Below, piece after piece: positions 33,366 to 47,443 of a DNA stretch of 64,000 nucleotides. The notes beneath the pieces were generated by a model, which ran no database searches, was not told where the DNA came from, and was given only the letters and a program-made list of their open reading frames with translations. How positions within the stretch are numbered: position 1 is the first letter of the stretch; every line of letters begins with the position of its first letter. The position numbers and the translations under genes were made by a program. Origin of the DNA: Pseudanabaena sp. ABRG5-3 (GTDB lineage Bacteria; Cyanobacteriota; Cyanobacteriia; Pseudanabaenales; Pseudanabaenaceae); contig NZ_AP017560.1 of assembly GCF_003967015.1 (NCBI RefSeq), forward strand, positions 3,718,048 through 3,782,047, read 5' to 3'.

Positions 33366-33887
33366 CTAGAGATTGGCTTTGCCAATCTCTAGCAAAATTT
33401 CTCCTTCAAGCTTTACAGCTTCTTGAATACGAGTTAATGGCACATGATGCGATCGCGCTAACTTCGCGCAGTCCTCATATTCTGGTTGAATCGTCCAGAA
33501 ACCATCCCGCCATGCTATCTTCACTCGCGCCTTGCCAAATTCTGTTTCAACTTCACGGATTTCGCGATGGAGGATTTTGCGCTCTTGCCAACGATAGCGA
33601 ATGCCGAGAGTGCTAGTTTCGCGAAAGAGAATTTGCTCACAAACAGTTTGGCGATCGCAGAGACAAATAACGGTAATTAGAGTTCCGTTACGGGATTTTT
33701 TCATACCCACTGCTTGGGTATACACATCCAGAGCGCCATTTTGCAATAACTGCTCCATCGTGTAAGCGATCGCTTGAGCAGACATATCATCAACTTGAGT
33801 TTCCAGAATGACGATAGTTTCAGTAATGCTTGCAATTGTTTGCTGTTTGGCAACTTCTTGAATAAAAGCAGCATTAATCTTTAATCT
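33366..33887 (-). CDS. larC: LarC C-terminal half (reached by -1 frameshift)
   Basis: Second part of LarC, which completes the nickel-pincer nucleotide cofactor by inserting Ni and cyclising the metallo ring. In the -1 frame the sequence is open from the run of nine A: RLKINAAFIQEVAKQQTIA, then TIVILETQVDDMSAQAIAYT and VYTQAVGMKKSRNGTLITVI, all normal LarC. The first ATG in this frame (33785) lies inside the conserved ETQVDDMS segment, so independent initiation would lose conserved residues; joining to the upstream half is the sensible reading. The 3' end forms a 12-bp hairpin with gvpK's end (33366-33392). Confidence 0.85.
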   Translation of the reverse strand, partial: RLKINAAFIQEVAKQQTIASITETIVILETQVDDMSAQAIAYTMEQLLQNGALDVYTQAVGMKKSRNGTLITVICLCDRQTVCEQILFRETSTLGIRYRWQERKILHREIREVETEFGKARVKIAWRDGFWTIQPEYEDCAKLARSHHVPLTRIQEAVKLEGEILLEIGKANL

Positions 33888-34777
33888 TTTTTTTTATCCT
33901 TTGACTTACTCTTTCCAACCCACAATCGCAAGGCATTAGGAATTTCCAAATCCTGAGAACCTGCACCTAAACCCACTTTTTTGATTTTCATTAAGGGAAC
34001 TTTGCCAAACTTTTCACTGAGAGTGACAGCGATCGCCGCTCCCGTGGGGGTGACTAATTCCTTGCGAATGCCATTGTCAAAGGTAGTTACGCCATGTAGT
34101 TCCCATAGTTTCAAGGTTGCAGGGGCAGGTACTGGCATCTTGCCATGATCACAATTGACATAGCCACCACCCGCAGGCAAAGCCGAACAATAGATTTTTT
34201 CGACTTCTAACCAAGCAAAACCTGCACAGGTGCAGACAATATCAACGATCGCATCGATCGCCCCCACTTCATGAAAATGTACTGCCTCTGGCGCGATCCC
34301 ATGCACAGATCCCTCTGCGATCGCGAGTTCTTTAAATATCGCTAAACTCCATTTCTCAACCTGCGCTGACAACTTAGCATTACGAATGATTTTCTCAATA
34401 TCAGGCAAATGCCGATGCACTTTATGGGTATTGACTTCATGATGATGATCATGACTATGGGAATGTTCTCCATGATTGTGCGCGTCATGATCGTGGGAGT
34501 GACTATGGGTGTGATCATGACTATGCTCATGGGAATCGGTGGCGGCTACGGTTGGTGGCTCATTACCGACATAATTTAATAACTCCACATGGAGCTTTGT
34601 CGCTTGAATACCTCCACGATAAACAGATTCTGTCCATAGCTTCACTTCGCGATCGAGTCCCAACTTATGCACAATATCTTGCAGATATTCTAATGGGACA
34701 CCTGCGTTCACTAGCGCCCCCAAACACATATCACCTGCGATACCTGTCGGGCAATCTAAATATGCAATGGTTCCCAT
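33881..34777 (-). CDS. larC: LarC N-terminal half (nickel insertion protein for the pincer cofactor)
   Basis: First part of LarC (298 residues before TAA). YLDCPTGIAGDMCLGALVNA at residue 5 is the family start; HRHLPDIEKIIRNAKLS, EGSVHGIAPEAVHFHEVGAI with DAIVDIVCTC, and RKELVTPTGAAIAVTL are conserved. Residues about 82-120 are a histidine-rich insert (SHEHSHDHTHSHSHDHDAHN and onward), likely to hold nickel or zinc. The frame runs out right after KDKKKD, encoded by AAA AAA AAA GAT TAA, and the rest of LarC follows in the -1 frame. Partners larB and larE are not in the window. Confidence 0.9.
   Translation of the reverse strand: MGTIAYLDCPTGIAGDMCLGALVNAGVPLEYLQDIVHKLGLDREVKLWTESVYRGGIQATKLHVELLNYVGNEPPTVAATDSHEHSHDHTHSHSHDHDAHNHGEHSHSHDHHHEVNTHKVHRHLPDIEKIIRNAKLSAQVEKWSLAIFKELAIAEGSVHGIAPEAVHFHEVGAIDAIVDIVCTCAGFAWLEVEKIYCSALPAGGGYVNCDHGKMPVPAPATLKLWELHGVTTFDNGIRKELVTPTGAAIAVTLSEKFGKVPLMKIKKVGLGAGSQDLEIPNALRLWVGKSKSKDKKKD
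33887..33895 (-). other. Slippery run of nine A: -1 frameshift site in larC
   Basis: On the coding strand GAT is followed by nine A and GATTAA. Zero frame stops six bases later; slipping back one base reads AAA-AGA-TTA-AAG and continues into the C-terminal half. A run this long allows ribosomal slippage, transcriptional slippage, or length variation at the DNA level; a sequencing error cannot be excluded. Confidence 0.7.
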
Positions 34778-46148: not shown

Positions 46149-46408
46149 AGAAATAAGCTTATTTAGTAAAAAAAATAAAAAATATTGATGACATAATCAC
46201 CTTTATTTGATCTATTTTATCGTAGATAAAATGATAATTAACCTAAGTTCAGATAAAGCCGCAGATGGTAAAAATACTCCATCTGTAAAGAAGATTGCTT
46301 AGGTTAATAACCATAAGCAAAACTCCCACAAATAACACCTCATTCATTGACGCATATGCATCTTGAGACAAAAGACGGCTTTCTTCGCAATTACAGTCCG
46401 TTGAGGGA

Positions 46409-47014
46409 TTAAGTAGTACAGTAACAACACTTAGTAAACCAATTTTTGAAGAAATCTTTTTCTAACAAGTAAGGGAAAACGTTGATTAAATGCTGAAGTA
46501 GTTTTTGAGACTGAGGTCTAAGCAATCTAATAAAATATTTGAGAACCGACCACATCATCTCAATTGGATTAAAATCAGGAGAATAGGTGGGTAAGTACAA
46601 AATCTTAGCGCCTGTCTCTGTAATTGCTTTTGCGACCCCCTCAACTTTATGGCAGTTGAGGTTATCCATGATTATCCTATGTTCAGGACGTAATTTAGGT
46701 ACTAGGTCATCTTGGATAAAGGTGAGAAAATCTTCCCCTTTCATTGAACCCTGAATCTTTTTCAGGCAAACAATACCATCGACCGAAATAGCCCCAATGA
46801 CTGTGTATTTCTGACCTTTGTAAAAGGGACGATGACTGAATACTCTCTTGCCACACTCACTTCTTGCCACAGAGCGTTCCATTCCCTGCCATACTCCCGT
46901 TTCATCAATACAAATAAGATCTTCAGCTTTTACCCCCTGCAATGCTTCCCAAAATTCACATCTTTGCTGTTGTACTGCCTCACTTTTTACCTTTTCATGG
47001 CGATAGGTCTTTTT
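46409..47014 (-). CDS. IS630 transposase, part B (DDE catalytic domain, -1 frame)
   Basis: The DDE domain: DLICIDETGVWQGMERSVAR supplies the first Asp, HRIIMDNLNCHKVEGV the second, and YLPTYSPDFNPIEMMWSVLK the catalytic Glu region. A plain ATG start exists at 46942, but the -1 frame is open from the A-run at 47009-47017 (KKKTYRHEKVKSEAVQQQRC), and those residues are normal IS630 sequence, so the product is made as a fusion with part A by frameshifting. All catalytic residues are present; the element may still be active. Confidence 0.8.
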   Translation of the reverse strand, partial: KKTYRHEKVKSEAVQQQRCEFWEALQGVKAEDLICIDETGVWQGMERSVARSECGKRVFSHRPFYKGQKYTVIGAISVDGIVCLKKIQGSMKGEDFLTFIQDDLVPKLRPEHRIIMDNLNCHKVEGVAKAITETGAKILYLPTYSPDFNPIEMMWSVLKYFIRLLRPQSQKLLQHLINVFPYLLEKDFFKNWFTKCCYCTT

Positions 47015-47355
47015 TTTAGCGTGATGTTATGCCTCTGGAAAAATCGGCACATACTGCCCGTGGTCACTGATACTCCTGTTTGTTCTGCTACTTCCTCACA
47101 GTACTGCCATAGTGTCCAATCTGGATGCTCTGTCGCAATTTTGAGGATTTTCTCTCGATGGGCTTCGAGCGGACTTTTGATTTGACTCCCTAATGGTTTG
47201 TGGTTTAGTTCTCCTGTCTCTCGGTATTGATTCAGCAGTGTTTGCACTGTTTTTGTCGCGACTTGAAATTGCTTAGCTACTTCACGAATCGATGTATTTC
47301 CTGCTTCGTAGGTTGCTACGATCTTTTGCCTAAGATCTAGTGAGTAAGGTGCCAT
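46987..47355 (-). CDS. IS630 transposase, part A (HTH domain)
   Basis: The 122-residue N-terminal part with two HTH motifs: LDLRQKIVATYEAGNTSIRE plus VAKQFQVATKTVQTLLNQYR for the first, and the DWTLWQYCEEVAEQTGVSVT region for the second. It binds the terminal repeats. The zero frame ends shortly after the A-run at KKRPIAMKR. ATG start at 47355. Confidence 0.85.
   Translation of the reverse strand: MAPYSLDLRQKIVATYEAGNTSIREVAKQFQVATKTVQTLLNQYRETGELNHKPLGSQIKSPLEAHREKILKIATEHPDWTLWQYCEEVAEQTGVSVTTGSMCRFFQRHNITLKKRPIAMKR
47009..47017 (-). other. Slippery site A8G in the IS630 transposase
   Basis: Eight A followed by G on the coding strand contain the classic A-AAA-AAG heptamer. A -1 slip joins part A to part B. 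Confidence 0.75.
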
Positions 47356-47443
47356 TTTTTACTCTCTTTTTTGTTCTGCTATCCTATCTTATCTTGTACT
47401 ACTCTTTCCCTCAATAGGCTGTATTGATTAAATGGGGATATTA

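What the first reader, a model, noticed from the sequence alone, without database searches (positions are those of the whole stretch)
33366..34777. larC split by a -1 frameshift on nine consecutive A
The N-terminal half of LarC ends in TAA six bases after nine A; the rest of LarC is open in the -1 frame starting on the same A run, with no sensible start codon of its own. In Lactobacillus plantarum larC1/larC2 are known to be joined by programmed frameshifting, so a split larC in a cyanobacterium on a different slippery site would suggest that frameshifting is a recurrent control of nickel-pincer cofactor synthesis. A run of nine A would also allow transcriptional slippage or on/off variation in DNA.
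Basis: partly seen in the sequence, partly recalled or inferred. Interest (0 to 1): 0.8.

Follow-up and report, generated by a model that had tools for sequence, protein, structure and literature searches.

The report
Frameshifted larC in Pseudanabaena cyanobacteria
A gene for the enzyme that puts nickel into a rare cofactor is broken into two reading frames at a run of A's, and because the same break is kept across nearly a whole family of cyanobacteria, the cell most likely slips frame there on purpose to make the full protein.

Summary
larC lies on the minus strand (33366-34777). LarC1 stops one codon after nine A (33887-33895), and LarC2 is open one frame back from that run, with no ATG, GTG or TTG before its conserved core. 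Of 37 genomes of the window's family (genus inferred to be Pseudanabaena) with larC, 34 are split and 3 intact. Of the 34, 33 shift by -1 and one draft by +1. Of 32 split loci measured, 31 carry A9 or A10 and one A6G, each with an in-frame A_AAA_AAR heptamer. Runs of nine or more A/T are rare here (2 in 464 kb). LarC2 is under purifying selection. In 15 of 32 loci a strong RNA hairpin follows the run (0 of 128 control windows), and two hand-picked hairpin groups covary. The window's own clade lacks the hairpin. Best reading: programmed -1 ribosomal frameshifting; RNA polymerase slippage stays open, most of all for this clade. Frameshifting in this protein family (DUF111) is already published, and Lactobacillaceae plasmid copies use the same kind of site (A10). 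So this is a well-conserved new member of a known kind. All evidence is comparative; no fused protein was observed.

The parts
33881..34777 (-). larC1: N-terminal part of LarC, 298 aa, zero frame, ends KKKD-stop
   Evidence: TIGR00299, 216.9 bits, cut-off 90; PF01969 positions 1-241
33887..33895 (-). run of nine A; the in-frame slippery heptamer A_AAA_AAA is 33893-33887
33881..33883 (-). zero-frame stop TAA, one codon after the run
33366..33893 (-). larC2: open in the -1 frame from the A run to its stop; no ATG/GTG/TTG before the conserved core
   Evidence: NF052512 148.8 bits, cut-off 50; PF01969 positions 236-374
33414..33821 (-). part of larC2 matching the solved LarC C-terminal domain (PDB 6bwo)
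   Evidence: residues 25-160 of P0001

Best explanation
larC of this Pseudanabaena is one gene expressed by programmed -1 frameshifting. Ribosomes read LarC1 to the run AAA AAA AAA. Most then stop at the TAA one codon later and release LarC1 alone. A fraction slip back one base on A_AAA_AAA and go on in the -1 frame through LarC2, giving full-length LarC, the CTP-dependent nickel-inserting enzyme of nickel-pincer cofactor synthesis. In many sister species a long RNA hairpin just after the run probably raises the slip rate; in the window's own clade the bare A run seems to suffice. Shown: the split, its conservation and direction, selection on LarC2, hairpin covariation in relatives. Inferred: that the slip is by the ribosome, its rate, and that both products are used.
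For: 34 of 37 family genomes with larC are split; 33 of the 34 are -1. An in-frame A_AAA_AAR heptamer sits at the junction in 32 of 32 loci measured, and the two-frame overlap is 25 nt or less in 23 of 32. Two genomes of genus g7 have only A6 but the heptamer A_AAA_AAG (G031, G431), shorter than the homopolymers usually linked to polymerase slippage (PMC3711429 passages give more than 7). LarC2 dN/dS median 0.16 over 162 genus pairs, against 0.10 over 177 pairs for LarC1. A 3' hairpin with z of -3 or lower in 15 of 32 loci, against 1 of 32 upstream windows and 0 of 128 control windows. Covariation: group A, 9 of 24 pairs changed on both sides, 0 of 500 shuffles as high; group B, 9 of 16, 4 of 500 shuffles as high. 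The hairpin core of group A occurs in 4 of 26 genus genomes, at one place each, always at larC. One shift direction is the published pointer to ribosomal frameshifting (PMC3711429 section 10). DUF111 sites gave up to 39% frameshifting in E. coli (PMC3711429 section 24).
Against: No hairpin in the window itself (z 0.45 over 60 nt, 0.09 over 147 nt) nor in its four nearest relatives. Two of those relatives instead show the strongest folding 5' of the run (L033 z -3.4, L051 z -2.9), the side on which polymerase-slippage stimulators lie; the window itself does not. The first two A of the run are not needed for a ribosomal heptamer in phase 0, yet the run keeps at least 9 A in 31 of 32 loci, which suits polymerase slippage. 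G430 (83% complete draft) has A8 and needs a +1 shift. The genome has tRNA-Lys genes for both AAA and AAG, a setting in which Thermus uses polymerase slippage (PMC5009743 passages). 17 of 32 loci have no strong 3' hairpin. No fused protein was observed.
Confidence: 0.68

Rival explanations
1. RNA polymerase slips on the nine A. A share of mRNAs carry ten (or seven) A and are translated normally into full-length LarC.
For: Run of at least 9 A in 31 of 32 loci, the length at which bacterial polymerase is reported to slip well in vivo (PMC5009743 passages); both tRNA-Lys genes present; no 3' hairpin in the window's clade, and some 5' folding in two of its relatives; G430 with A8 needs the other direction; Thermus dnaX precedent (PMC5009743 passages).
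Against: A6G instead of A9 in two genomes of genus g7; 33 of 34 splits share one direction; the covarying hairpins lie 3' of the run, whereas the described slippage stimulator is a hairpin in the RNA 5' of the site (PMC5009743 passages).
Confidence: 0.23
2. LarC1 and LarC2 are made as two separate proteins, LarC2 from its own start or by coupled re-initiation, as the two-gene larC of some Bacillales suggests.
For: In the Niallia and Paenibacillus plasmids larC2 lies in another frame and an ATG follows a ribosome-binding-like sequence. 19 of 31 cyanobacterial loci do hold at least one ATG/GTG/TTG in the linker.
Against: In 12 of 31 loci checked, the window included, there is no ATG/GTG/TTG between the run and the conserved LETQVDD motif; in the others the positions differ between clades. 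It does not explain the conserved A run or the constant direction.
Confidence: 0.06
3. Sequencing error, or a decaying pseudogene.
For: Homopolymer runs are common error sites; G430 (A8) and G261 (no run, sister genome G432 intact) may be such cases.
Against: Same split in 34 of 37 family genomes, from one-contig assemblies to drafts; purifying selection on LarC2; covarying hairpins.
Confidence: 0.02

Closest known systems
DUF111 cluster of programmed frameshift genes (Antonov et al. 2013, PMC3711429)
   Same: Same protein family (DUF111 is taken here to be PF01969, now Ni_insertion/LarC; that renaming is recalled). Two ORFs joined by frameshifting, tested in E. coli reporters at up to 39% (section 24 read).
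   Different: Species in that cluster were not visible to me (supplements not readable), so whether cyanobacteria were included is unknown. Covarying 3' hairpins for DUF111 are not mentioned in the sections and passages I read.
larC1/larC2 of Lactobacillaceae (plasmids; the L. plantarum frameshift itself is recalled, not read)
   Same: -1 shift at a poly-A run between the LarC1 and LarC2 parts (A10; computed for plasmid pW56; same run in four other copies). The LarC2 of the L. paracasei plasmid copy L110 is identical over 149 residues to the solved structure 6bwo.
   Different: A11 fused versions coexist with A10 split ones; larB, larC, larD and larE stand together in L110. In the own Pseudanabaena genome larB, larC and larE are scattered and LarA is not found.
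dnaX frameshift sites (E. coli A_AAA_AAG plus 3' hairpin; Thermus A9)
   Same: A-run slippery site, with a downstream hairpin in many relatives of the window.
   Different: In E. coli dnaX the frameshift makes the shorter product; here it would make the full-length one. An upstream Shine-Dalgarno-like stimulator was not tested here.
IS630-type transposase in the same window (46392-47423)
   Same: A8G run near the end of orfA, with orfB in the -1 frame.
   Different: Mobile element, not a cofactor gene.

Membership tests
LarC (nickel-pincer cofactor nickel insertion protein, PF01969) | Both LarC1 and LarC2 domains present above curated cut-offs | tested here: met
LarC (nickel-pincer cofactor nickel insertion protein, PF01969) | LarB and LarE in the same genome | tested here: met
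   LarB over cut-off in 26 of 26 and LarE in 24 of 26 genus genomes, own genome included
LarC (nickel-pincer cofactor nickel insertion protein, PF01969) | CTP-dependent nickel insertion activity | not testable with these tools
   Nickel insertion by the Synechocystis homologue in an E. coli system is reported in PMC11796402 (passages)
Programmed -1 ribosomal frameshifting | In-frame slippery heptamer at the junction, conserved | tested here: met
   32 of 32 loci plus G431
Programmed -1 ribosomal frameshifting | One conserved shift direction | tested here: met
   33 of 34 are -1; exception G430, a draft with A8 and +1
Programmed -1 ribosomal frameshifting | Stimulatory structure 3' of the site (usual, not obligatory) | tested here: inconclusive
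   Strong fold in 15 of 32 loci, covarying in the two groups tested, absent in the window
Programmed -1 ribosomal frameshifting | Fused product made from unedited mRNA | not testable with these tools
   needs proteomics and cDNA sequencing
Programmed transcriptional slippage | Homopolymer long enough for polymerase slippage (about 9) in every member | tested here: not met
   31 of 32 have 9 or more; G031 and G431 have A6G, G430 has A8
Programmed transcriptional slippage | mRNAs with changed run length | not testable with these tools
   needs cDNA sequencing

The most novel reading that the evidence does not exclude
The shift is a kept control device rather than a tolerated accident. It sets a ratio of free LarC1 to full LarC for a cofactor whose user protein in cyanobacteria is unknown, and Pseudanabaena lineages have built different 3' hairpins around one fixed slippery site while nearly the whole family kept the split.
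Probability: 0.3. Interest if true: 0.65.

Novelty: new member of a known kind. Interest (0 to 1): 0.5.

Why it matters
To my knowledge (recalled), few frameshift sites in housekeeping genes, outside insertion sequences and dnaX or prfB, are known to be kept across a whole family. Here the same cofactor gene carries a poly-A -1 site in lactobacilli and in cyanobacteria, which makes testable whether free LarC1 has a role of its own. It also gives a natural series (bare A9, A9 plus hairpin, A10, A6G) for measuring what a bacterial frameshift site needs, and warns that annotation will call this gene broken or as two genes.

Tried and rejected
Sequencing error or pseudogene: rejected, since 34 of 37 family genomes are split and LarC2 is under purifying selection. 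Hairpin as a dispersed repeat: tested for group A only; its core occurs at one place in each of 4 of 26 genomes, all at larC; the other hairpin types were not searched genome-wide. Known Rfam element: none in the 6 loci searched. Stimulator in the window: none found within 60 or 147 nt downstream. tRNA explanation (a missing tRNA-Lys CUU where A_AAA_AAG is used): not supported, G031 has a 94% identical match over all 72 bases of the gene (its anticodon was not read). G261 as an independent frameshift site: rejected, no A run and its genus mate is intact. A reading of G430 as another -1 case was dropped after checking frames, it is +1. A wider survey of Firmicutes genomes could not be run. Literature: searches with larC or related names and frameshift words returned no paper; one search listed two lar papers (PMC3496567, PMC7702098; passages, without frameshifting); brought the DUF111 paper; of the papers listed, passages of PMC11796402 and PMC11770544 were read and speak of no frameshift. 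The L. plantarum frameshift is therefore recalled. Rows dropped before counts: L044 (N half in two frames) from the tree and dN/dS; L055 (no N half) throughout; L035 had been listed for hairpin group B and was left out of the alignment.

Full report
What is there. On the minus strand at 33366-34777 lies larC, the gene for the nickel-inserting enzyme of nickel-pincer nucleotide synthesis. Its N-terminal part (33881-34777, 298 aa) ends GAT AAA AAA AAA GAT TAA. The C-terminal part is open in the -1 frame from 33893 to 33366. NCBIfam calls the halves LarC1 (216.9 bits, cut-off 90) and LarC2 (148.8 bits, cut-off 50), and both match PF01969. The break lies in the linker just before the solved C-terminal domain: residues 25-160 of ORF2 match 6bwo. 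The genus is inferred: of the 10 named close relatives found, 8 are called Pseudanabaena, one Phormidium tenue and one an uncultured cyanobacterium.

It is not an error. A search of 58 genomes found larC in 25 of 26 genomes of the genus and in 9 of 9 others of the family. All 25, and 7 of the 9, are split; G026 and G033 are intact. Three more family genomes add one intact (G429) and two split (G430, G431). In all, 34 of 37 are split. G015 has no larC match. In the tree of 58 sequences the family forms one group (support 83/89, below the 95/80 mark) with the two intact sequences G026 and G033 inside it. One origin with a loss in that genus, or two origins, both fit.

Direction. Of 32 loci read, 31 gave -1 directly. 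The 32nd (G013), whose N half carries a further frame break upstream in that assembly, gave -1 on the named copy of the same contig (L080). G431 is also -1, and G430, an 83% complete draft, has A8 and needs +1. So 33 of 34 are -1. The run has 9 A in 27 loci, 10 in 4, and is A6G in 1. All 32 hold an in-frame A_AAA_AAR heptamer, and in 23 of 32 the two frames overlap by 25 nt or less. The four A10 loci did not regain one frame.

Background. In 464 kb of the own genome (window plus 400 kb sampled) there are 2 A/T runs of 9 or more. In-frame A_AAA_AAR occurs 28 times in 127,630 codons of ORFs of 100 aa or more. Five of these lie within 40 nt of an ORF end: larC, three copies of one sequence (an IS630-type orfA), and one other.

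Selection. Within the genus (24 loci), median dN/dS is 0.10 for LarC1 (177 pairs) and 0.16 for LarC2 (162 pairs), pairs filtered to dS 0.1-1.5; the highest LarC2 value is 0.35. In 12 of 31 loci checked, the window included, no ATG/GTG/TTG stands between the run and LETQVDD; 19 of 31 have at least one.

RNA structure. In 60-nt windows, the RNA just 3' of the run folds with z of -3 or lower in 15 of 32 loci; 5' of the run in 1 of 32 (L033, with L051 at -2.9; both are near relatives of the window); in control windows inside larC1 in 0 of 128. An earlier pass with 70-nt windows gave 14 of 31. Two groups of seven loci were chosen by hand after seeing the folds; L035 had been meant for group B and was left out; the hairpins of L038, L042 and L054 were not tested for covariation. 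Group A has 24 pairs, 9 with changes on both sides, 97.0% of cells paired, slid versions 40-50%. Group B has 16 pairs, 9 with changes on both sides, 90.2% paired, slid versions 38-54%. Shuffles reached the count of such pairs 0 of 500 times in A and 4 of 500 in B, and the number of further pair types 17 and 5 of 500 times. The core of hairpin A is found in 4 of 26 genomes, at one place each, at larC. The window's own clade (5 genomes) has no such hairpin.

Mechanism. Ribosomal -1 shifting on A_AAA_AAA fits the constant direction, the A6G variant in genus g7 and the 3' hairpins. A published rule infers ribosomal shifting from a single direction (PMC3711429, section 10). Polymerase slippage fits the retained nine A, the two tRNA-Lys genes, G430, and the bare site in the window. 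PMC5009743 (passages) reports efficient slippage in vivo at nine A or T and a 5' nascent hairpin as stimulator. I put ribosomal at 0.68 and transcriptional at 0.23. That one or the other joins the frames I hold at about 0.9.

Elsewhere. Outside the family, a phylum sample had 245 of 386 genomes with a match, 4 of them in the genus. Five of the other 241 showed two or more matches and were searched again. G155 is split at A9, -1, while the other 16 members of its family in the sample had single matches. G261 is -1 without a run, and its one genus mate is intact. G039 is in frame with a long linker. G068 and G288 were not resolved. A single match was taken as unsplit and not read base by base. 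In one search, G036, G041 and G042 also had two matches; their halves are in one frame at the linker. On plasmids, 10 of 14 Lactobacillaceae records were read: 5 have A10, 4 have A11, 1 is fused without a run. The -1 shift was computed for one A10 copy and the fusion for one A11 copy; for the rest I go by the same run length, with annotation as two or one CDS where given. The Niallia and Paenibacillus plasmids appear to carry larC1 and larC2 as separate genes.

Biology. LarB is over its cut-off in 26 of 26 and LarE in 24 of 26 genus genomes, LarA found in 0 of 26. PMC11796402 (passages) states that most cyanobacteria lack LarA-like proteins, that Synechocystis LarC works in an E. coli system, and that the user of the cofactor is likely a protein not yet identified.

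Novelty. Frameshifting in DUF111 was tested up to 39% in 2013 (PMC3711429, sections 10 and 24 and passages). So the kind is known. What is added is the depth of conservation, the direction count, the covarying hairpins, and the match with the Lactobacillus poly-A site.

Noticed in passing
window 46392-47423: IS630-type element: HTH_Tnp_IS630 orfA (46987-47355) and DDE_3 orfB (46409-46942) on the minus strand in different frames, an A8G run near the end of orfA, 29-nt imperfect terminal inverted repeats (79%). The same orfA end occurs in two of the 20 sampled stretches (L094, L101). It looks like a second A-run frameshift in the same window.
   Followed up: partly
L110, L111, L178-L184: Lactobacillaceae plasmids carry larC with A10 or A11 at the same site: 5 and 4 of the 9 copies with a run. 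Run-length switching or sequencing error cannot be told apart here.
   Followed up: partly
G015 (no locus): A 99% complete Pseudanabaena-genus genome with LarB and LarE but no larC match.
   Followed up: no
L055 (G024:C17:476624-477040): A second LarC2-like C-terminal half about 7 kb from the split larC in G024.
   Followed up: no
L106:14183-16567: The only other A9 run in the 464 kb sampled lies in a histidine kinase/response regulator ORF, in phase, 153 nt before its end.
   Followed up: partly
L112, L115: Niallia and Paenibacillus plasmids carry larC1 and larC2 as apparently separate genes, so a split LarC may work as two proteins in some bacteria.
   Followed up: no
L216 (G430): larC with A8 and a +1 relation between halves in a draft genome, against A9 and -1 in its genus mate G030.
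   Followed up: partly
L033, L051 (60 nt upstream of the A run): Two near relatives of the window show moderately strong folding 5' of the run (z -3.4 and -2.9), the opposite side from the hairpins of other species.
   Followed up: no
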